Below are positions 47,345 to 59,292 of a stretch of 64,000 bases of DNA, one piece after another. The notes under the pieces are model-generated. The model was not told the origin of the DNA. It saw only the letters and a list, made by a program, of their open reading frames with translations, and ran no database searches. Where the stretch lies: contig JAFSFD010000002.1 of assembly GCA_017435365.1 (NCBI GenBank), positions 1-64,000 on the forward strand, read 5' to 3'. Each line of letters starts with the position of its first letter. Positions within the stretch are counted from its first letter, which is position 1. This DNA is from Akkermansia sp. GTDB taxonomy: Bacteria; Verrucomicrobiota; Verrucomicrobiia; Verrucomicrobiales; Akkermansiaceae. Both the position numbers and the translations under genes were made by a program.

Positions 47345-48886
47345 TCAAGGCTCGGCGGGGCGGATACGCTCTTCATGGGCTTGAATCGCAAGCGGAATAT
47401 AATGCTGCCGGGAGAATAGCGGCATAAGGAGCCCCTGCTCCCGAGCCTCGCAATAGAAGAACTTAGCCATCGCTATATATACGAACTGGTTGAAAAATTT
47501 AACGAGGGTACCGGCTGATATGTAAAACAGCCCCAGCTGCGCCACGTAAGGCAAAATCAGGAAAAGGGAGGGCAAATACATGGGGGTTCCTCTCAATGCG
47601 TGACAGACACGCAGAATTACCCACACGCTCGTTACAAACACTAAAGTAACCAGGCCAAGCCCCACAAATCCCAGGCGATGCACCGTAGTAATACCACCGT
47701 TATGCCACACACCGGTAACAGCAAACTGCTCTCGCAGGTTATAACCAGAACCTTGACGCATCATGGCAGTGGTCTCACGGCGCAGGAAATCAACAGAAAT
47801 ACCGAAACCGTCACCCCAGACATAATCCCGGATGTAACCGGTACGTGGGTCAACCGCCCATTTCCACATCTCTACGCGCCATTCGCTTGAGTGCCCAGCG
47901 TTATATTCCACTTCAGCCGACACCTCAACACCCGGCAAAATGGAAATACACCGCTGAATGCCAAAGGGCCAATCATCCAGCATTTCCTCCTTACTCAAAT
48001 AAAGCAACGCGCCATATATGGCGAGAAAAATAAGCGTGAGGCACCATAATTCACGCTTGATATGCGCCAAGGCTATGGTAATAATGGCAGAAGCAAGCAT
48101 CTGTTCGCGCCAGCCTGACAGCAGAATAGCGATACACGAAAGCACGCACCCTATGAAAAGTCCAGGAGAAAGCAGCACCCGGGACATCGGATGTTGGCCA
48201 TACAGTATGTAAACACCATACATACCCAGCTGCATAAACATACCGAAGCGGCCACCGGTTGCAGCCTCATGCAAATCTTCGGGACCGCCGACGTACCCGG
48301 TAAGTCGTATGCCGATTGCAACGAAACAGGTAATAATACACAACCTGACACACCAACGCAGAACCCGCACCACCTGTTCTCGCGGGCACGGAATGCAACT
48401 CATTGTGATATAAAACAGAACAGCCAGAATACAGAAAACGTACTCCTTGCCACCCACGTAATCCGTCTCCCAGCCGAGAACCGCCATGGAAACCGGATTA
48501 CGAATGAATGAAATCACCATGTAAAGGAAGAGCGCAGCCACTGCAAAATCCAGCGCCAGAAGGCTGCGCCAGCGGAATCGCACATATCCCATCCCCCACA
48601 TGATGAACCAGTATACCAGAACCACCAACCCTACCAGGTAAGAAACAGGGATGGTGCCCAATTTACCCGGCAATGGAAGCAAGGCCATCACCGGTGGCAC
48701 AATGAAAATGAGAACCCAGCAGCGAGCCCCCAGCCAAAGCATGAAACAGCCACCTACAAGAGCCGCAATGATGCCTACGGATACTTCTTTACTCTCCGCA
48801 ACTTCGGCCCCAATCACAATGCACAAAATTACAAGAACGAGGCAGGCGAGAACATTCTTGACAATCGCATTGGGCATATATTCCAT
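47345..48886 (-). CDS. O-antigen ligase/polymerase-like membrane protein
   Basis: The 513-residue protein has about eleven hydrophobic segments and a large periplasmic loop (about residues 300-390, with EYNAGHSSEWRVEMWKWAVDP and GDGFGISVDFLRRE), the topology of Wzy/WaaL-family proteins. HSSEWRVEMWKWAVDPRTGY resembles the R-x3-W region seen in the ligase family loop, and IAILLSGWREQMLASAI fits the preceding membrane segment. It could polymerise or ligate the glycan exported by the genes at 54.5-59.2 kb. Start could be 48886 or 48877. It lies just downstream of a strong hairpin that follows ilvB. Confidence 0.78.
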   Translation of the reverse strand: MEYMPNAIVKNVLACLVLVILCIVIGAEVAESKEVSVGIIAALVGGCFMLWLGARCWVLIFIVPPVMALLPLPGKLGTIPVSYLVGLVVLVYWFIMWGMGYVRFRWRSLLALDFAVAALFLYMVISFIRNPVSMAVLGWETDYVGGKEYVFCILAVLFYITMSCIPCPREQVVRVLRWCVRLCIITCFVAIGIRLTGYVGGPEDLHEAATGGRFGMFMQLGMYGVYILYGQHPMSRVLLSPGLFIGCVLSCIAILLSGWREQMLASAIITIALAHIKRELWCLTLIFLAIYGALLYLSKEEMLDDWPFGIQRCISILPGVEVSAEVEYNAGHSSEWRVEMWKWAVDPRTGYIRDYVWGDGFGISVDFLRRETTAMMRQGSGYNLREQFAVTGVWHNGGITTVHRLGFVGLGLVTLVFVTSVWVILRVCHALRGTPMYLPSLFLILPYVAQLGLFYISAGTLVKFFNQFVYIAMAKFFYCEAREQGLLMPLFSRQHYIPLAIQAHEERIRPAEP

Positions 48887-50924: not shown

Positions 50925-51692
50925 TCAGCGTTTCGGATAGATAATTTTTACTTCATTCCCGCAATCCAGCATCATGGCAAGCTCATTCAGGTCTTTCTGC
51001 TCCATACGCAGCTTGATTGGGCCATGGCCATTCTGCCCGCTGGTCAGCACCATACCATTAGAAAGCAGCAAAACACGCTCCGATGCCGGATACTTCGGAG
51101 AACGCACCGGCACGGCGAGCCCCTCCAGGTATCCCTCCCTGGCCTTCAATTCCACCGTAGCGGTTTTCTGACCGGCGGGTGGTATATCATCCATACTCTC
51201 TATCTGGTAATCCGCCACCAGCTGCTGACCATCCCACACCGAGACCTCGCGCTGCAAGGGGCGGATCTCCATCCGCAGGCGCATGGGAACAAGCACCAGC
51301 TTCTGCCCGATTTGCAGTGCAGAAGGCTCCACAATCCCATTTAACATCATGATGACGTCCTGCGGGCATTTCTGAGTAGCCGCAATGCGGGCCATATTAT
51401 CCCCCTTGCGCACAGTGTACACAACAGCCCCGGGGTGCATGCGGGAGAGATAACGCGGCACATTCACGCGCCCGCATATCTGCCGGGCCTCTCGCCCGGC
51501 AATTCCCTCATCCGTCACATAGGGCTGAAGCAGCAAAACAGCCTCTCCGCCCTTCTGCTCCTGCATCAGGCGCCGGGCCTGCTCCAGTTCCTCCGGGCGG
51601 CGCGGCCAGAGTGAAAAATTATCTGTTGCAACAGCGGGCTGAAATGCACTATATAAGCCCGCGACGACGAAAATCAAAGAAGTTAATTTCAT
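50925..51692 (-). CDS. Exported LysM protein with a YkuD-like domain lacking the catalytic cysteine
   Basis: The 255-residue product has a signal peptide (MKLTSLIFVVAGLYSAFQPAVA), a helical segment, a LysM peptidoglycan-binding domain (VVYTVRKGDNMARIAATQKC to QIGQKLVLVP, about residues 90-135), and a C-terminal beta domain. In L,D-transpeptidases this last domain ends with SHGCIRL-type active-site sequence; here the corresponding stretch reads NGHGPIKLRMEQKDLNELAMML. If that alignment is right, the cysteine is replaced by proline and the domain is catalytically dead. It overlaps the upstream gene by 44 bp. Binding to peptidoglycan as a non-enzymatic partner is likely. Confidence 0.7.
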   Translation of the reverse strand: MKLTSLIFVVAGLYSAFQPAVATDNFSLWPRRPEELEQARRLMQEQKGGEAVLLLQPYVTDEGIAGREARQICGRVNVPRYLSRMHPGAVVYTVRKGDNMARIAATQKCPQDVIMMLNGIVEPSALQIGQKLVLVPMRLRMEIRPLQREVSVWDGQQLVADYQIESMDDIPPAGQKTATVELKAREGYLEGLAVPVRSPKYPASERVLLLSNGMVLTSGQNGHGPIKLRMEQKDLNELAMMLDCGNEVKIIYPKR

Positions 51693-52574: not shown

Positions 52575-53327
52575 TTACGGGCGCAAACCGGCAGCTAAAG
52601 CAATGCCTTGCAACGTGAGACGCGGCTCAATTCTGCATTTTCTACGCATCAGGCACGAGACGACTTCAGCATCCCCCCCCGTCAGGATAACGTGTATACA
52701 CTCACCCAGTTCAGCTTCCACTGCATCCAGGAGCGCATCAATCATACCGGGATAACCGACCCGCACCGCGGCACTCATGGCCTGCCGGGTATCCTGCCCG
52801 ATGACGCCGCTGCCAGCCAATTCAGAGATGGCGGGCAATTGAGCGGTGCGGGAGTCCAGCGCCGCCGCCATTGCGGCATAACCGGGGGCAATCATGCCAC
52901 CGCGAAACACAGGATGCGACTCCGTACCGGTGACGACATCAAACGTCGTTGCAGTACCGAGGTCGACCGCAACCACGGGCAATGGAGAAATCGCTACCGC
53001 CGCCAGCACATTGGCAACGCGGTCAGCCCCTAAAGTGGCAACTCCCGGATATGATGAAAAATCGACAAGCGATGAAATTTCCGGTGATACATTCTCAAGG
53101 GGATATCCCTGCAACGCCGCACGGAGGCATTCGCCGGCCCACGGCACAACCGAACACAGACATACACGGGCAAAAGACCAGCCACGCAGTATATTCTGCA
53201 CGGTCAACACGGAGATATCCGCTGTGGGGAGCACCCGGATTTCCGAAAGTGCTCCGCCCTCGCACAGCGCAAACTTGGTACGCGTATTGGAGTTATCCAC
53301 CAGCAAGCAACTATCATCCCTTTTCAT
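52575..53327 (-). CDS. coaX: Pantothenate kinase, type III
   Basis: CoaX phosphorylates pantothenate in the first step of CoA synthesis and is not feedback-inhibited by CoA. The 250-residue product has LLVDNSNTRTKFALCEGG at the N-terminus (phosphate-1 motif), LGADRVANVLAAV, VVAVDLGTATTFDVV (phosphate-2 motif) and GGMIAPGYAAM. The start is the ATG at 53327, because it forms an ATGA overlap with the upstream gene and begins the homology. A longer frame to 53405 lies in the neighbouring gene and is rejected. The phosphate-1 motif reads DNSNTRTK instead of the usual DIGNTNTK. Confidence 0.93.
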   Translation of the reverse strand: MKRDDSCLLVDNSNTRTKFALCEGGALSEIRVLPTADISVLTVQNILRGWSFARVCLCSVVPWAGECLRAALQGYPLENVSPEISSLVDFSSYPGVATLGADRVANVLAAVAISPLPVVAVDLGTATTFDVVTGTESHPVFRGGMIAPGYAAMAAALDSRTAQLPAISELAGSGVIGQDTRQAMSAAVRVGYPGMIDALLDAVEAELGECIHVILTGGDAEVVSCLMRRKCRIEPRLTLQGIALAAGLRP

Positions 53328-54436
53328 AAGCAGAATCGATGACAAATGATACGGGCAATGCGGGCGGCAGCCCGGGAGCGGTCGGCAGACTGCATGGCGG
53401 CGCACATTCTGCGCCAGCCGGCGGCATCATGCTCCAGCATGCGGCGCAGAGTATTCACCAGGTGCGCAGTAGATTCCACATGACAGCCTGCAGCATCTTC
53501 CAGCAACAATTCCAGATTCCCCTGTTCCTGCCCGGGTAAGATAAAGTTTACCAGTAAGGGGACATTGGACGCATAACATTCGAACATCGTTGCAGCCCCT
53601 GCCTTGCCAATATAAAAATGACTCTCGCGCAGCAGCTGGTGCATCGACTCAGACTCTCGCAGCACCACCAGGCGCCCGGCTGCACATTCTGCACAGAACC
53701 GGCGCTGAAGTAGGTGCACTCTGTTACCGGCCAGCACAGTCAGCCGCAGTTGGGGGAATGCAGCAAGCATGGCCGATACATCATTCACCACACCCAGGGT
53801 CCGTCTGTACGCTCCGTACAGAATTCTGAGATTCTCCGAATCCGGCGCGAGCCTGTGCTGAGCAGGTGCAAATCTGCTTTTTACCGGGAATCCCGGAGCC
53901 AGCACCATGTCGCCACCCAGAGCATAGCGGTCCATCACCATGCGACGCGAGTCTTCATCCGGAACCAGCACCAGCTCCGCAGCTGATCGCATCCAGGGGC
54001 GGCTGATTTCCCGGGCATCGGTCACCAGCATGGTATACGGCGGCACCTGCACGCCGCGTTCCTTGAGCGCATCCAGCATATACGCAAACAAGGGATAAGT
54101 GCAGATGATAAGGTCGGGCTCCCAGGAGCTCAGCAATTCGTGCGTATAGCGCAACAATCCGGCAAACAACGGGCGCTTCACCATCCTGGCCCAGTCTGCT
54201 GTATCCGTAAGCGAATAAGTCACCCCCCATAACCACGGGGCTCTCCGCACGCACAGTTCATAAAACTTCTGCGTGCACCGGAATGCCACCGGCTGAGCCT
54301 CGGCACACACATCCACAGTCCGGCTCACCCAGCCATCATGCCCGAACTGCTCAGCCAGAGCCGCAGCAGCGGAGTGATGTCCCTGCCCGTAGCCGACACT
54401 TAAAAGCAAAAGCCTTCTTGCACGCTCACTTCTCAT
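53324..54436 (-). CDS. MGDG-synthase/MurG-like glycosyltransferase (GT28 type)
   Basis: The 370-residue protein resembles the monogalactosyldiacylglycerol synthase family, related to MurG. The N-terminal half has LLLSVGYGQGHHSAAAALAEQF (about residues 10-31) and DLIICTYPLFAYML; the C-terminal half has the donor-binding motif FYIGKAGAATMFECYASNVPLLVNFILPGQEQGNLELL (stretch near 278-315). Enzymes of this family add sugars to diacylglycerol to make glycolipids. It is coupled to coaX by an ATGA overlap. The donor and lipid acceptor are unknown. A glycolipid or polysaccharide role fits the nearby export genes. Confidence 0.85.
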   Translation of the reverse strand: MRSERARRLLLLSVGYGQGHHSAAAALAEQFGHDGWVSRTVDVCAEAQPVAFRCTQKFYELCVRRAPWLWGVTYSLTDTADWARMVKRPLFAGLLRYTHELLSSWEPDLIICTYPLFAYMLDALKERGVQVPPYTMLVTDAREISRPWMRSAAELVLVPDEDSRRMVMDRYALGGDMVLAPGFPVKSRFAPAQHRLAPDSENLRILYGAYRRTLGVVNDVSAMLAAFPQLRLTVLAGNRVHLLQRRFCAECAAGRLVVLRESESMHQLLRESHFYIGKAGAATMFECYASNVPLLVNFILPGQEQGNLELLLEDAAGCHVESTAHLVNTLRRMLEHDAAGWRRMCAAMQSADRSRAAARIARIICHRFCL

Positions 54437-54504: not shown

Positions 54505-55122
54505 TTATGGCCCAATCTTGTCGGGCCTACCCTCGAATGCCGGGCGCCGCGGCACAAATACCGAGTCATTCGGCATCAACTTGATAGAGCGATCGCGCGC
54601 ACTGAAATAATCATAGGTTCGTGTCACCTTGCCACGCGTAATCTGAATCTTGCGAGAGCCGAAGTCGGTAATATCGCCGCACTCAATCAACGCCTGAATC
54701 AGAGTCATACCCTCACGGTAAGGCAGATTCTTCTTACCGGCAACATGACCAGTCACCTGCACATAGCGGGCATCCACAGCAGCCTCCCCCTTCGGCCCTA
54801 CGTTGGCCATGACGATGGGGTCCGAATAAATCTGCTGAGTCAGGTACAGCGAGCGGAGCTTATTTTCCACCTGGCGTGCCGTAAGGCCGACAACGCTGAC
54901 GCGCCCGGAAAGATACGGCATGGAAATAGTACCATCCTGACGACTGACCGCATACTCACCATTCACGTTATTAACGTCTTCGCTCGGGATATTCTTGAAC
55001 TGGACTACGATAATGCCGCCCTTAGTTGCGCGGGGCTCGGTAGAGGCATCCTGAGCCAGCAGCGGCAGTGCCAGCATGCACATTACCAGCAGAAGAACCT
55101 GTTTCAAAATAGAGTTTCTCAT
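54505..55122 (-). CDS. Short polysaccharide export (OPX) protein
   Basis: The 205-residue product has a signal peptide (MRNSILKQVLLLVMCMLALPLLAQ) without a lipobox cysteine, then a poly-export domain (YAVSRQDGTISMPYLSGRVSVVGL, TARQVENKLRSLYLTQQIYSDP) and a single SLBB-type segment (VQVTGHVAGKKNLPYREGMTLIQALIECGDI; SRKIQITRGK). It lacks the C-terminal helix that forms the outer-membrane pore in Wza. Short OPX proteins of this kind are thought to work with a separate outer-membrane barrel, and such a barrel gene lies in the same cluster at 57403-58608. It is 9 bp downstream of the tyrosine kinase gene. Confidence 0.85.
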   Translation of the reverse strand: MRNSILKQVLLLVMCMLALPLLAQDASTEPRATKGGIIVVQFKNIPSEDVNNVNGEYAVSRQDGTISMPYLSGRVSVVGLTARQVENKLRSLYLTQQIYSDPIVMANVGPKGEAAVDARYVQVTGHVAGKKNLPYREGMTLIQALIECGDITDFGSRKIQITRGKVTRTYDYFSARDRSIKLMPNDSVFVPRRPAFEGRPDKIGP

Positions 55123-55131
55123 GGTATTTCT

Positions 55132-57330
55132 TCAGTAAAGATCTTCCTGATTCTTGTTTTCCACTTTTGCCACTGCCTTAGCACCCGGCTGCGGGGAAGA
55201 AGGCTTCGGCTCGGAGCGGCCCTCACCCTTGCTGTAGTATGAGTAATAAGTGGTATAGTACTGATACTGCGTATCACCGCTGATATCCACATTATTCATA
55301 ACCAAGCCCATAATCTGGCCACCTGCGTTCTGAACAAGAGACTTCGCGCGCAGCAGAGCCTTAATCGGCATCTTGCGCGGTTGCAGCACCAGCAGCGTTG
55401 CATCCGCCTTGCTCACAAGCAGTGAGGCATCACTCACGCCCAGCACAGGCGGAGAGTCAATCAATACGATATCAAAACGACGGGACACCTCGCTGATGAG
55501 TTTCTGCATGCGGTGCGAGCCGATGAGACCACTGGGGTCAGTCGGTATGGGACCACTGGGCAGCATGTACAGGTTGGCATGTCCGGTCTGGAACACCACA
55601 TCCTTCAGCTCGGCCATGCCGGCCAGATAAGTAGACAAACCTACATCACTCTTCAGCTCGGCATAGCGTGCGAGACGCGGGCGACGCAGGTCCGCATCCA
55701 TCATAAGTGTGCTGTATCCTGCCTGGGAGAACACATAGGCCAGATTACTCAGGGTCGTAGTCTTACCTTCACCGGCATTAGCAGACACCACGGCAATAGT
55801 AGTAGCTTTGTACAAATCCTTCTTCAGCTCGATATTCGTGCGCAGGATTCGGTACGCCTCCGCATCCGGACTGTCTCCCCCCTGCAGAATCAGCAGGCCG
55901 GCATCCTGAGGGATAACCCCCAGCACAGGCAGCCCCATGTTGCGTTCGGCGTCTTCCAGGGTCTTGATGGAGGTATCAAAGTAGTTGCTGATAAATGCCA
56001 CCACAATACCGGCAAGCAGCCCCACCACGGCGCCAATAATAAGATTCAGGCGGTAATTAGGGCTGCTGGGTGCCCCCGGAAGACCAGGACGGCTGTATAC
56101 ATCCAGACTGGTACGGGGCGCCATCAGGCGCATCTTATCGGCAATATAGTCATTCTCCAGTTTATCATAACGGGCCTTTTCAGCAGCGTATTCCTGGAGC
56201 GCATTCTTCACCTTCTGGTCTTCGAGCGTCTTATCGCGCAGGCGGTCACGAGCCTCGACATAGCGCTGCTCCACATTCTGCAGTTCAGATTTCTTGACAT
56301 CGAGCTGATCCACCATAGCGTCACGCATGCCGACCAACTCCTCATACAGCTGCTCACGCGTGCTCTTGTGCTGTTCATCCAGACGGAGCACATTGGGATG
56401 GCGCTGGCCATAGCCACTGAGCAGCATCTGCGCACGGTTGTTTTCCTCCTCGGTAAAGCGATTATTCAATTCACGCACTTTGGCAGAGCAATAGGACTCA
56501 GCTGTCAGCAAACCGGTGCGGGTAACATAGCTCAACAGCTCTGCATCCTTCAAATCCTGCAATTTGCTGATATGCACTGTCATCTGCGCAATCTCAGTCT
56601 CCAATGTCAGTTTGGAATTATTCAACTGCTGCAGAGTCTGTTCTTCAGCACCGGTAGAAACGGGCACTCCATGGCCGGCATCACTCCACATTCCCTGAAT
56701 GTACTTGCCGGAACGAATGTACTGGCGCACCACGTCTGCCTTGCGTTCCAGTTCATCCTGACGGGAACGCAGCACTTCGTATCGCTTATTGATAGCCTCG
56801 TTGATAACGGCGTTTTCCTTCTCCTCTCGCAGTTCCTTATAGCAATCTACGACGGCCTGACACACCTGCTGGGAAACGCGCGGGTCATTCGTGGTTACCG
56901 TTATATCCACAAGATTCGTATTCTTACGCGGCATCACCCTGATCATGCTCATCAGAACATTAGCAGCCGTTGTCTCATCCATCTGCCATTCATTGGGCAA
57001 ATCAAGCTTGTTAGCGACTGCTATCAGGTTCTGCTGGGAAACCAGGATTTCGAACTGGGTCTGCATGTAAGCACCGCCATCAGCCATGGCTGCAATGGGA
57101 TTACCCTCGCCCCCCACTGCAACATTAATCAAATCTCGCGGCTGCTTAATCTCAAAGGTCATGCCGCTCATGTACTTGGGCGTCATCATCTTCGTAATGA
57201 CGGCACTACTCACAAACACAAGAAGAAAAACAAGCAATATCGTCTTCCACCTGCTCCGCAGAATCTGCATGTAATCCTGCGCATGCAACATTGCCTCCAT
57301 CTGTTTAGGCGAATTTACGCTCGTATCCAT
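55132..57330 (-). CDS. Polysaccharide co-polymerase fused to tyrosine autokinase (Wzc-like)
   Basis: The 732-residue protein controls chain length and export of a Wzy-type polysaccharide. Two membrane spans (WKTILLVFLLVFVSSAVITK near 29-48 and LIIGAVVGLLAGIVVAF near 434-450) flank a periplasmic coiled-coil region. The cytoplasmic BY-kinase domain has Walker A VSANAGEGKTTTLSN (about residue 510-524), Walker A' LMMDADLRRPRL and Walker B VLIDSPPVLG. A tyrosine cluster near the C-terminus (QYQYYTTYYSYYSKG) is the usual autophosphorylation site. It lies between the barrel and OPX genes. Confidence 0.95.
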   Translation of the reverse strand: MDTSVNSPKQMEAMLHAQDYMQILRSRWKTILLVFLLVFVSSAVITKMMTPKYMSGMTFEIKQPRDLINVAVGGEGNPIAAMADGGAYMQTQFEILVSQQNLIAVANKLDLPNEWQMDETTAANVLMSMIRVMPRKNTNLVDITVTTNDPRVSQQVCQAVVDCYKELREEKENAVINEAINKRYEVLRSRQDELERKADVVRQYIRSGKYIQGMWSDAGHGVPVSTGAEEQTLQQLNNSKLTLETEIAQMTVHISKLQDLKDAELLSYVTRTGLLTAESYCSAKVRELNNRFTEEENNRAQMLLSGYGQRHPNVLRLDEQHKSTREQLYEELVGMRDAMVDQLDVKKSELQNVEQRYVEARDRLRDKTLEDQKVKNALQEYAAEKARYDKLENDYIADKMRLMAPRTSLDVYSRPGLPGAPSSPNYRLNLIIGAVVGLLAGIVVAFISNYFDTSIKTLEDAERNMGLPVLGVIPQDAGLLILQGGDSPDAEAYRILRTNIELKKDLYKATTIAVVSANAGEGKTTTLSNLAYVFSQAGYSTLMMDADLRRPRLARYAELKSDVGLSTYLAGMAELKDVVFQTGHANLYMLPSGPIPTDPSGLIGSHRMQKLISEVSRRFDIVLIDSPPVLGVSDASLLVSKADATLLVLQPRKMPIKALLRAKSLVQNAGGQIMGLVMNNVDISGDTQYQYYTTYYSYYSKGEGRSEPKPSSPQPGAKAVAKVENKNQEDLY

Positions 57331-57353
57331 ATCCTTGTCTATAAGAATTAAAC

Positions 57354-57387
57354 GCCGGAGAGGCTTGTCTCGATAATCCTCTCCGGC
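57354..57387 (-). terminator. Hairpin between barrel and kinase genes
   Basis: GCCGGAGAGG (57354-57363) pairs with CCTCTCCGGC (57378-57387); on the - strand TTTAATTC follows. It may end or attenuate transcription of the barrel gene before the kinase gene. Confidence 0.65.
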
Positions 57388-57402
57388 ACATTAAAAACAA
57401 CA

Positions 57403-58608
57403 CTAGAAATTGTATGTCAGGCCAGTTGAAATATTATGGCGCGTGTAGTCAATGCCCCCACTGTCACGGTCAGACTCATACCAGGTGTATCGGTATTCTA
57501 TGGAGCCATAAAGCTTTTCAGAGAAGCGGTAAGTCATCCCCACATTAGGAATAATCGTCGTATTGGTCTCATCCTCCAGGCGCCCGGTACCCTTCGTGTA
57601 GCTGCTGCGCATAAGAGAAAGGCCGAACGTAAACGACACATCCGGAGAAAGAGTGTACGAACAGTTAGCCCCTACGCGCCAGGTTAAATCAGAAAGGTAG
57701 TTAGCCCCTACGCCACGGTAAGTATCTACATTCTCATTGGAAAGGGAAAGGTAGAAATTGGCACTGAATCCTTCTGCCACCCGGCGGTTGTAACCCAGGT
57801 TTACTACAGGAGAAAGAATGCTGTCATTGTGCACGTACTTGGTCTGCAAGCCTATGGAGCCACTGCAACTGGAAACAGGGTCCAGAGAACGGCTGAACCC
57901 GGCTGTCACCGTTATATTGTCAGAATTATACCCCTTCTCGCGCAAATCACGGCGATACGTAAGATTTGTGTTGTACGAAAGCAGCTCTGAGGCACGATAG
58001 CTCAACCCGGCGCCGCCGCTTACATACTGGCGGTTGTCATCCTGATATTCCGTCTCGCTGTACAGATTACCGCTGTAGGTTCCGTTTACATTCCAGCTCC
58101 AGCGGCTGTCAATCGACTGATTGTAGGAATTACTGAACGACCAGTTCAGACAATCACCCTGCCTGCGCGAGGCCGAAATGCCGCTCGCGTACTCCGGCTC
58201 CGGGCTGTACGTCACAGAAAGACTGGCAGAATACGAACTGCGCGAAGTGAAAGCATGCACAATGCTGGCCGTCAACCCGCAGTCCGCATACATCTTCTTA
58301 GACGAAGATGCTGAGGAAGCCTTGGAATAGCGTGTTGCACCCAGATTAAATCTGTATGAAATCTTGTCTACAGACTCGTAATCCGCAAAGCTAGCGCCGA
58401 AACCTGCATTTATGTACGAACTTGCCTGCTCATCAACAGATGAAGCATTCATGTTCGTATCATAACCGAATCGAGCATAAGCGTTATACTTGGCGGCGTG
58501 CGATTCCGGCAACCCCACGGACGGAGCCATATCATACAAGGATATAGCACCCGCGTTCACTGCACACATCCCTGTGAGCAGCAGCAACTTGTAAAAATTC
58601 GATTTCAT
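57403..58608 (-). CDS. Outer-membrane beta-barrel protein, candidate polysaccharide porin
   Basis: The 401-residue product has a signal peptide (MKSNFYKLLLLTGMCAVNAGA) and a C-terminus of alternating residues ending in Phe (NISTGLTYNF), the usual barrel-insertion signal. The body is rich in aromatic and Ser/Asn/Tyr residues in repeated two-strand units (for example SYRFNLGATRYSKASS; SASLSVTYSPEPEYASG), consistent with roughly 16-18 strands. It is similar in style to barrels of exopolysaccharide loci. Together with the short OPX protein and Wzc-like kinase it could form an export channel across the outer membrane. Confidence 0.78.
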   Translation of the reverse strand: MKSNFYKLLLLTGMCAVNAGAISLYDMAPSVGLPESHAAKYNAYARFGYDTNMNASSVDEQASSYINAGFGASFADYESVDKISYRFNLGATRYSKASSASSSKKMYADCGLTASIVHAFTSRSSYSASLSVTYSPEPEYASGISASRRQGDCLNWSFSNSYNQSIDSRWSWNVNGTYSGNLYSETEYQDDNRQYVSGGAGLSYRASELLSYNTNLTYRRDLREKGYNSDNITVTAGFSRSLDPVSSCSGSIGLQTKYVHNDSILSPVVNLGYNRRVAEGFSANFYLSLSNENVDTYRGVGANYLSDLTWRVGANCSYTLSPDVSFTFGLSLMRSSYTKGTGRLEDETNTTIIPNVGMTYRFSEKLYGSIEYRYTWYESDRDSGGIDYTRHNISTGLTYNF

Positions 58609-58634
58609 ACAGGTGATCAGGCCTCAGCAAACTA

Positions 58635-59192
58635 TTAGTTGTTTGCAGATGTAGGCGGGGGTGTCGGAAGAACCGAATACTCAGGAGCCACAGGAGCCGT
58701 GGGCACATAAGCCTCCAAAGCCTCAGCAGAAACACCATTGCCTGCTGCGCGGCCCGCTACCGCACTACCTACCACACCCTGCACCACCGCTGCCGCCACA
58801 GCCTGTGTCTGCGGCATAGTGTACAGAGAAGAAAGCAACTGATACCCCTGAGAAGAAACCAGCCCGGCACCAGCCGACGAGCTCTGGTAAGTCGCAGCGC
58901 TCTGAACAAAACCGGATTCCAGTGACGGCGCAGCCAGAAGAACAGAGCGAAGAATAGCGTACGTCTCCGTCACGCTCCAGTTCTGACGCTGCTGCATCAC
59001 ATTCTGGAACACCTCAACAGCCTGACTCGGCTGAGCCTTCACCAGCTCATACACAGCCATACTAAGCGCATCCAGAGACGCACCGGAGGCCTCCTGCGCC
59101 ATGGCGGACACAGAAGAAAGGCTCGCCTCTTCAGCATGCACAGTGCCAGCAAGCATACCAGCGAGCAGAATCACAGAAAGTACCTTTTTCAT
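58635..59192 (-). CDS. Exported Ala/Ser-rich protein of unknown function
   Basis: The 185-residue product has a signal peptide (MKKVLSVILLAGMLAGTVHA) and an Ala, Ser, Gln and Val-rich helical body (SLDALSMAVYELVKAQPSQAV; AVAAAVVQGVVGSAVAGRAAG) with a proline-rich tail (PTAPVAPEYSVLPTPPPTSANN). No cysteine remains after cleavage and no known family is recognised. It lies 26 bp upstream of the barrel gene on the same strand, so it is the first gene of the export operon and probably acts in the periplasm or at the outer membrane with it. Confidence 0.72.
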   Translation of the reverse strand: MKKVLSVILLAGMLAGTVHAEEASLSSVSAMAQEASGASLDALSMAVYELVKAQPSQAVEVFQNVMQQRQNWSVTETYAILRSVLLAAPSLESGFVQSAATYQSSSAGAGLVSSQGYQLLSSLYTMPQTQAVAAAVVQGVVGSAVAGRAAGNGVSAEALEAYVPTAPVAPEYSVLPTPPPTSANN

Positions 59193-59221: not shown

Positions 59222-59292
59222 AGCGGGTAGCGGGAATCGAACCCGCATGATCAGCTTGGAAGGCTGGAGCTTTGCCATTAAGCTATACCCGC
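59222..59292 (-). tRNA. tRNA-Gly (TCC anticodon)
   Basis: The - strand forms a cloverleaf: acceptor GCGGGTA/TACCCGC, D-arm TAGCTTAATGGCAAAGC, anticodon loop CTTCCAA with anticodon TCC, T-arm GCGGGTTCGATTCCCGC. CCA is not encoded. Confidence 0.94.

What the first reader, a model, noticed from the sequence alone, without database searches (positions are those of the whole stretch)
54505..59192. Exopolysaccharide exporter built from a short OPX protein and a separate beta-barrel
The OPX protein lacks the outer-membrane helix of Wza and a lipobox, while a 401-residue barrel and a small exported protein lie in the same run of genes as the Wzc-like kinase. This fits the proposed third class of OPX systems, in which an integral barrel acts as the outer-membrane pore. 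The Ala/Ser-rich 185-residue protein would be a new component.
Basis: partly seen in the sequence, partly recalled or inferred. Interest (0 to 1): 0.5.

Follow-up and report, generated by a model that had tools for sequence, protein, structure and literature searches.

The report
Polysaccharide exporter with extra helical protein
This gut Akkermansia genome carries a four-gene set that looks like a recently described kind of sugar-polymer exporter (a short ring protein plus a separate pore), together with a previously undescribed exported helical protein that travels with it through related bacteria.

Summary
In detail: four adjacent minus-strand genes encode an exported 185-aa protein (SML), a 401-aa outer-membrane barrel, a Wzc-like kinase (PCP) and a 205-aa OPX protein without OM helix or lipobox. 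A terminator follows the OPX gene. The barrel model has 18 strands with AlgE as top VIA match; the OPX profile covers Wza D1-D2. The genome holds one PF02563 (OPX), one Wzz, one Bac_transf and one PF01943 match; no full-length Wza was found. In 76 Akkermansia-genus genomes, short OPX and barrel coincide in 51, with one exception cut by a contig end; longer cps-type OPX occur with and without the barrel. So this is a member of the composite OPX/beta-barrel (EpsY/EpsX, Class 3 OPX/Wzp) kind. The A. muciniphila counterpart is very probably Amuc_1411-1414, whose PCP (Amuc_1413) is reported as phase-variable and needed for mucin binding. New is SML: directly upstream of the barrel in the Akkermansia loci that reach that far, at the same place in other genera of the order, without a convincing Pfam or NCBIfam family, predicted helical with a proline-rich tail. 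I propose a periplasmic adaptor of the translocon; that role is inferred, and orphan paralogues elsewhere weaken it.

The parts
58635..59192 (-). SML: exported 185-aa protein; signal peptide, helical domain (about residues 25-150), Pro-rich low-confidence tail ending TPPPTSANN
   Evidence: ORF; no Pfam match, NCBIfam only at E 0.07 or worse; AF2 mean pLDDT 77, 90 or more over 85 residues; conserved upstream of the barrel
57403..58608 (-). 401-aa outer-membrane beta-barrel, proposed OM pore (EpsX/Wzp-like)
   Evidence: OMP_b-brl 7.3e-7, TIGR03016 3.1e-12 but below its cut-off, 18 strands in AF2 model, AlgE Z 20.6
57331..57402 (-). 72-nt gap between barrel and PCP genes with a 10-bp hairpin followed by a weak T-run; possible partial terminator
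   Evidence: hairpin plus T-run in 19 of 40 loci against a mean of 0.5 in 30 dinucleotide shuffles
55132..57330 (-). Wzc-like polysaccharide co-polymerase / BY-kinase (PCP), two hydrophobic TM segments (31-49, 430-448), C-terminal Tyr cluster
   Evidence: the only Wzz (PF02706) match in the genome
54505..55122 (-). short (D1D2) OPX protein, signal peptide ending ..LLA/QD, no OM helix
   Evidence: the only PF02563 match in the genome
54458..54482 (-). intrinsic terminator, 11-bp stem plus T-run, closes the four-gene unit
   Evidence: hairpin plus T-run downstream of OPX in 36 of 44 loci against a shuffled mean of 0.7
59222..59292 (-). tRNA-Gly (tcc) immediately upstream; bounds the operon on the 5' side

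Best explanation
[quoted passage not shown] Polymer made at the inner membrane is handed up by the Wzc-like PCP to a periplasmic ring of the short OPX protein. Because that ring cannot cross the outer membrane, the polymer leaves through the 18-stranded barrel. The repeat unit is probably made elsewhere in the genome (single Bac_transf transferase on C18, Wzx-like flippase with GT2 and pyruvyltransferase genes on C40). Shown here: gene set, conservation, co-occurrence, fold prediction, single family matches in the genome. Inferred: polymer passage, OPX oligomer, OPX-barrel contact, the link to C18 and C40. SML is predicted to be exported and is co-inherited; I think it most likely acts in the periplasm as a helical adaptor or clamp at the barrel/OPX junction (about 0.4), rather than as a barrel chaperone or secreted matrix protein.
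For: Short OPX and barrel coincide in 51 of 76 genus genomes; 1 short OPX lacks a barrel (G012, a 71%-complete MAG whose contig begins at the PCP gene), 0 barrels lack a short OPX, 24 genomes have neither. Longer OPX (stop-to-stop frames 254-358 aa) are in 25 genomes, 3 of them without a barrel, and 29 barrel genomes have none. Own genome: one OPX, one Wzz, one Bac_transf, one PF01943 match. Barrel model 18 strands, pLDDT 81; AlgE best by VIA, Z 20.6, rmsd 4.7, 309 aligned. OPX profile maps to Wza D1-D2; 33 of 33 OPX match TIGR03027 and 17 of 33 match EpsY NF041843 at E<=0.001. SML: 37 of 37 genus hits lie within 182 bp upstream of the barrel, same strand, and 0 of 25 barrel-less genomes have one. 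M. xanthus EpsX/EpsY stabilise each other and interact in pulldowns (PMC9601211, abstract and passages); a Sphingomonas barrel gene (prmC) next to its OPX gene is required for EPS (PMC11340318, passages).
Against: No wet-lab evidence for this locus. AlgE is within 1-2 Z of OccK/OprD small-molecule porins, and Foldseek puts such porins first. Longer OPX are also associated with the barrel, weakly (22 both, 3, 29, 22; p 0.009 without correction for ancestry). A. muciniphila strain HG3, with Amuc_1412 Q134P plus one silent and one non-coding change, bound mucin normally (PMC13055324, passages); weak, as the substitution may be harmless. PCP length between TMs (about 380 aa) is not obviously extended. 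The repeat-unit genes are not linked to the operon. SML paralogues occur without the exporter in other genera (11 of 39 hits), 2 of 13 outgroup barrel loci lack SML, and the Sphingomonas hypothetical protein beside its barrel (prmB) was dispensable; I did not test whether prmB resembles SML.
Confidence: 0.85

Rival explanations
1. The barrel is an ordinary small-molecule porin (OprD/OccK-like) that happens to sit in the operon, and the short OPX works without it.
For: Foldseek ranks OccAB4 and OpdG first and VIA puts OccK2 (19.4) close to AlgE (20.6); PMC13055324 calls the A. muciniphila counterpart a putative porin (passages).
Against: Near-perfect co-occurrence with the short OPX, while longer OPX occur without the barrel in 3 of 25 genomes and the barrel without them in 29 of 51; conserved adjacency to PCP/OPX in other families of the order; the barrel matches an EPS-system OM family, TIGR03016, below cut-off.
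Confidence: 0.08
2. The barrel anchors or displays finished polymer at the surface (Wzi-like lectin role), and another pore exports it.
For: Wzi is also an 18-stranded barrel of Wzy-dependent systems (stated in PMC9601211, passages).
Against: No other OPX in the genome to form the pore; the OPX lacks any OM segment.
Confidence: 0.05
3. SML is not part of the translocon: it is a chaperone for barrel insertion, or a secreted matrix/adhesion protein co-regulated with the polymer.
For: Orphan paralogues away from any barrel/OPX in other genera (11 of 39 hits); lower identity to the window protein (22-75%) than the barrel (31-78%), as is common for exposed proteins; low-confidence Pro-rich tail.
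Against: In the 37 Akkermansia genomes with an A4-type match it is single-copy and beside the barrel, and no barrel-less genome has one.
Confidence: 0.5
4. The set belongs to the XrtA/PEP-CTERM protein-sorting EPS system and mainly serves exosortase cargo.
For: Nearest curated families are TIGR03027 and TIGR03016; an exosortase is in the genome.
Against: Scores lie far below those families' cut-offs (49.7 of 180; 46.2 of 90.85); the exosortase is on another contig.
Confidence: 0.12

Closest known systems
Myxococcus xanthus EpsX/EpsY (D1D2 OPX plus 18-stranded barrel; PMC9601211, passages)
   Same: Short periplasmic OPX coupled to an 18-stranded barrel whose nearest solved fold is AlgE, plus a PCP
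   Different: OPX here has no lipobox whereas all but one of the myxobacterial ones are predicted lipoproteins; an extra conserved exported helical protein; Wzx/PGT genes unlinked
Class 3 OPX / Wzp porin (PMC9603273, passages)
   Same: Poly_export-SLBB only, no Wza_C, paired barrel
   Different: Term searches of the main texts found no 'Verrucomicrobi' in PMC9601211 or PMC9603273 and no 'Akkermansia' in PMC9603273; but the tree legend of PMC9601211 names the PVC superphylum, so verrucomicrobial short OPX may be in its data. No fourth component is described in the passages I saw
XrtA/PEP-CTERM EPS export set (TIGR03027 OPX, TIGR03016 barrel, TIGR03007 PCP)
   Same: Best NCBIfam neighbours of OPX and barrel
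   Different: Below curated cut-offs; PCP and kinase fused; no exosortase in the operon
Akkermansia muciniphila Amuc_1411-1414 (PMC13055324, PMC13343947, passages)
   Same: Very probably the orthologous operon: 735-aa Wzc-like PCP preceded by a barrel, G-tract near the same place
   Different: Small protein is a longer, very diverged form (219-225 aa in the A. muciniphila-type loci read); the long G-tract is not shared by the window (G6)
cps-type Wza of Akkermansia (such as Amuc_2077)
   Same: OPX with its own Wzc in the same genus
   Different: The two copies read (L070, L071) are 261 aa with an LPAC lipobox-like motif and a C-terminal hydrophobic segment; longer OPX occur with or without the barrel

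Membership tests
[quoted passage not shown] Class 3 OPX/Wzp) | OPX of at most 280 aa with PES motif (PF02563) and SLBB only | tested here: met
   205 aa, Poly_export 32.1 bits and SLBB 31.3 bits, both over cut-off; aligned to Wza residues 100-232
[quoted passage not shown] Class 3 OPX/Wzp) | No C-terminal OM-spanning helix (Wza D4) in the OPX | tested here: met
   Sequence ends shortly after the SLBB; no hydrophobic segment beyond the signal
[quoted passage not shown] Class 3 OPX/Wzp) | OM beta-barrel gene within five genes of the OPX gene, plus a PCP | tested here: met
[quoted passage not shown] Class 3 OPX/Wzp) | Barrel of 18 strands, AlgE-like | tested here: met
   18 strands in the AF2 model; AlgE top in VIA but within 1-2 Z of OccK porins; a predicted, not solved, structure
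[quoted passage not shown] Class 3 OPX/Wzp) | PCP with an extended periplasmic helical part | tested here: inconclusive
   About 380 aa between hydropathy-predicted TMs; no structure predicted
[quoted passage not shown] Class 3 OPX/Wzp) | Barrel required for polymer export and in contact with the OPX | not testable with these tools
   Needs mutants or a complex
XrtA/PEP-CTERM EPS export families (TIGR03027, TIGR03016) | Score above the curated cut-off | tested here: not met
   49.7 of 180 and 46.2 of 90.85 bits; 33 of 33 OPX and 15 of 40 barrels match at E<=1e-3
Wza (Class 1 OPX) | D3/D4 with OM alpha-helical pore | tested here: not met
Wzi lectin barrel | 18-stranded barrel with N-terminal helical plug | tested here: inconclusive
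   No Wzi-named family among the Pfam matches; structure list limited to 50 entries

The most novel reading that the evidence does not exclude
In Verrucomicrobiales the OPX/barrel translocon has a fourth subunit: an exported helical-repeat protein whose Pro-rich C-terminal tail docks on the barrel or OPX ring and couples the two, doing for a Wzy-type exporter what periplasmic TPR proteins do for AlgE and PgaA in synthase-type exporters. In Akkermansia it would be obligatory, and in A. muciniphila needed for mucin binding.
Probability: 0.33. Interest if true: 0.65.

Novelty: new variant of a known kind. Interest (0 to 1): 0.5.

Why it matters
It assigns an export machine to an Akkermansia locus that other work links to mucin binding (Amuc_1413) but whose barrel was described there as a putative porin, and it names one undescribed protein family to test as a translocon part. 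It also gives a natural comparison inside one genus: the short OPX goes with the barrel, the longer OPX can occur without it.

Tried and rejected
Considered and dropped: (1) a full-length Wza elsewhere serving this kinase: one PF02563 match in the 96.98%-complete genome, and one match with the OPX profile. (2) PF02563 alone as a presence test: it missed the short OPX in G001, G003, G069 and G080, so the OPX profile was used for the tally. (3) Poly-G phase variation in this genome: near the site where A. muciniphila has G9, the window has only G6; among the 42 PCP genes only L115 (G8) and L116 (G7) have a run of 7 or more at that place, plus L053 (G8). (4) A specific fold for SML: no PDB hit at E<=0.001, best VIA Z 7.9 to a designed protein, within the range the tool calls common for helical models. 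(5) Plain profile comparison of the small proteins: Akkermansia form against outgroup form, local probability 80.6% and E 1.3e-5 but with the signal peptides included, global 55%; the A. muciniphila-clade form (3 sequences) against either, under 1%. Ranking was used instead. (6) In the 16 outgroup loci L054-L069: L054 has no PCP within the 20-kb stretch, L065 starts at a contig end, L056 has no barrel detected; of 13 barrel loci 10 have SML directly upstream, L058 has it about 1 kb away, L055 and L068 lack it. The outgroup barrel profile was built from ORFs chosen in these same loci by size and C-terminal aromatic residue, and the SML profile from 9 of them, so these loci are not independent tests. 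In one search my automatic SML pick at L055 and L058 was a wrong ORF and was left out of the alignment. (7) Wzi did not appear among the 50 rows. (8) A linked Wzy: the 513-aa ORF 47345-48886 is only a sub-threshold Wzy_C match (21.7 of 31.7 bits), so it is not claimed. (9) In the lipobox count one of the two A. glycaniphila OPX copies was overwritten and not counted.
Full report
WHAT IS THERE. Four genes lie head to tail on the minus strand between a tRNA-Gly (59222-59292) and an intrinsic terminator (54482-54458, 11-bp stem plus T-run): SML 185 aa, barrel 401 aa, Wzc-like PCP 732 aa, OPX 205 aa. Gaps are 26, 72 and 9 nt. The stretch downstream of OPX carries a hairpin with T-run in 36 of 44 loci (window plus 43; mean of 30 shuffles 0.7, most 3), and the barrel-PCP gap carries one in 19 of 40 (shuffled mean 0.5, most 2). 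So the four genes probably form one unit, possibly with partial termination after the barrel, which would favour SML and barrel over PCP and OPX (inference).

IDENTITY OF THE PARTS. OPX: Poly_export and SLBB over Pfam cut-offs. A profile of 33 OPX aligns best with Wza residues 100-232 among solved structures (a weaker second match to 237-326 repeats the SLBB part) and also matches two short polysaccharide export proteins (9n9a, 7xfd) and PslD. No C-terminal hydrophobic segment. A loose lipobox pattern occurs in 3 of 64 OPX, each with the Cys at residue 7 or 11; the window OPX has none and shares a conserved A/Q signal-cleavage-like site. PCP: Wzz plus BY-kinase (TIGR01007 2.7e-50), two hydropathy TM segments, C-terminal Tyr cluster. 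Barrel: AF2 with 40 sequences gives 18 strands, pLDDT 81, pTM 0.75; VIA ranks AlgE first (Z 20.6, rmsd 4.7, 309 aligned), OccK2 at 19.4, while Foldseek puts OccAB4 and OpdG first and AlgE fourth. EpsX of M. xanthus also has AlgE as nearest fold (PMC9601211, passages).

GENOME CONTEXT. Relatives found by the OPX search are titled Akkermansia or Akkermansiaceae in most of 43 records, so I take the window to be an Akkermansia-genus MAG. In its 2.5-Mb, 96.98%-complete genome there is one PF02563 match, one Wzz, one Bac_transf on contig C18, one PF01943 match on C40 that also matches PF13440 over its full length and lies beside three GT2 genes and a pyruvyltransferase (PF13440 itself was not searched genome-wide), and one exosortase on C22. 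The simplest reading is one Wzx/Wzy-type polymer whose repeat unit is made elsewhere and which leaves through this operon; the link is inferred.

CO-OCCURRENCE. In 76 genomes of the genus: barrel in 51; short OPX (profile score 202 bits or more) in 52, longer OPX (56 bits or less) in 25 genomes, 42 copies, with nothing in between. Only two longer copies, L070 and L071, were read. Short OPX and barrel: 51 both, 1 OPX only (G012, contig begins at the PCP gene), 0 barrel only, 24 neither; Fisher p 6.6e-19. Longer OPX and barrel: 22 both, 3 longer only (G007, G015, G097), 29 barrel only, 22 neither; p 0.009. The p-values ignore shared ancestry. SML of the A4 type: 37 genomes, one copy each, all 37 with a barrel, all within 182 bp upstream on the same strand. 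Of the 14 barrel genomes without an A4 match I read three (G004, G013, G017: L051-L053); these, and the named loci L109, L111, L112 and L114-L116 (A. glycaniphila and A. muciniphila among them), have a diverged 192-225-aa exported protein in the same slot. Among 43 loci, 39 have a small protein upstream of the barrel (one cut short, L090); L076, L077 and L088 are cut by the contig start, and L103 has OPX without PCP or barrel, but in that genome (G029) SML, barrel and PCP are on another contig.

THE SMALL PROTEIN ACROSS THE ORDER. A profile built from nine outgroup small proteins (A5), searched in 286 genomes of the class, matched 29: 28 in the same order and one marginal elsewhere (E 1.8e-4); 257 genomes, the Akkermansia ones included, gave no match at E<=0.001. 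Of its 39 matches, 28 are followed by barrel, PCP and OPX in that order and 11 stand alone. Twenty-two of those 28 genomes were not used to build the profile, and all 22 have an operon copy. Because the Akkermansia form is not found directly, homology was tested by ranking: a profile of the core without the signal peptide, from other genera, run against 5418 ORFs of the 43 Akkermansia loci, puts small-protein ORFs in the first 17 places (39 such ORFs exist); best E 1.4e-4 (A. glycaniphila), next 0.025, the rest weaker, and reversed decoys reach E 1.9. With the full-length profile the first 14 places are small-protein ORFs. I take this as good evidence for the family as a whole, not for each member; the ORFs are related to each other, so the places are not independent. 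Family libraries: single weak hits only, in Pfam for A4 (three families, one member each, best E 0.0009) and in NCBIfam for A5 (one, 0.0024), none in Pfam for A5; for NCBIfam the Akkermansia form was scanned only as the window protein.

STRUCTURE OF SML. AF2 with 30 sequences: pLDDT 90 or more over 85 residues, helices 25-32, 40-53, 55-66, 74-87, 89-104, 115-125, 133-150, 156-161, then a low-confidence tail. No significant fold match. Two tail positions (P178, S182) are nearly invariant in 30 Akkermansia sequences.

LINK TO KNOWN WORK. PMC13055324 (abstract and passages) reports that a G-tract frameshift truncates Amuc_1413, a 735-aa Wzc-like protein, with loss of mucin binding, and describes Amuc_1412 as a putative porin; the terms OPX, Wza, EpsX and EpsY were not found in its main text. 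PMC13343947 (passages) names amuc_1411-1414 a separate predicted EPS locus beside cps1, whose Wza is Amuc_2077. In the A. muciniphila-titled loci L114-L116 the order is small protein, barrel, 735-aa PCP, OPX, so Amuc_1411 and 1414 are assigned by order (inference; locus tags were not seen). Searches for the locus tags (4 of 4 listed), Akkermansia with Wza/Wzc (20 of 195 listed), PEP-CTERM with export and barrel (12 of 20), Verrucomicrobi with OPX (10 of 29) and Akkermansia with polysaccharide export and barrel (2 of 2) showed, in listings and the passages I opened, no paper describing this set as an OPX/barrel translocon; unlisted hits, subscription papers and supplements were not seen, and PMC9601211 has PVC-superphylum members in its tree.

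VERDICT. The export system is a new member of the composite OPX/beta-barrel kind; with an OPX lacking a lipobox and a conserved exported helical partner I call it a new variant. Core reading 0.85; SML as a working part of the translocon about 0.4, as a subunit of the stated design about 0.33.

Noticed in passing
L109 / L051 (A. glycaniphila), L054, L061, L065: Tandem duplicated short OPX genes, two copies in A. glycaniphila, G044 and G051 and three in G052; whether they form mixed rings is unknown.
   Followed up: no
L167, L169, L171-L175, L178-L181: Orphan exported proteins with the SML-type helical core, some with an N-terminal extension and some ending in PPxVTxVDP-like tails, away from any barrel or OPX.
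   Followed up: partly
57331-57402: Hairpin between barrel and PCP genes, with a 13-bp stem and T-rich tail in the A. muciniphila-type loci L111, L112, L114-L116; possible partial terminator.
   Followed up: partly
53324-54436, 50925-51692, 47345-48886: MGDG-synthase-like glycosyltransferase, LysM protein and a Wzy_C-like membrane protein lie downstream of the operon in many loci of the genus but were not detected in the A. muciniphila-type loci L111, L112, L114-L116.
   Followed up: partly
G029 (L103 and L182): Operon apparently split: OPX and glycosyltransferase on one contig, SML, barrel and PCP on another, all four kept.
   Followed up: partly
L077: A contig deposited as a Clostridia MAG carries an Akkermansia-type PCP-OPX pair; probably mis-binned.
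   Followed up: no
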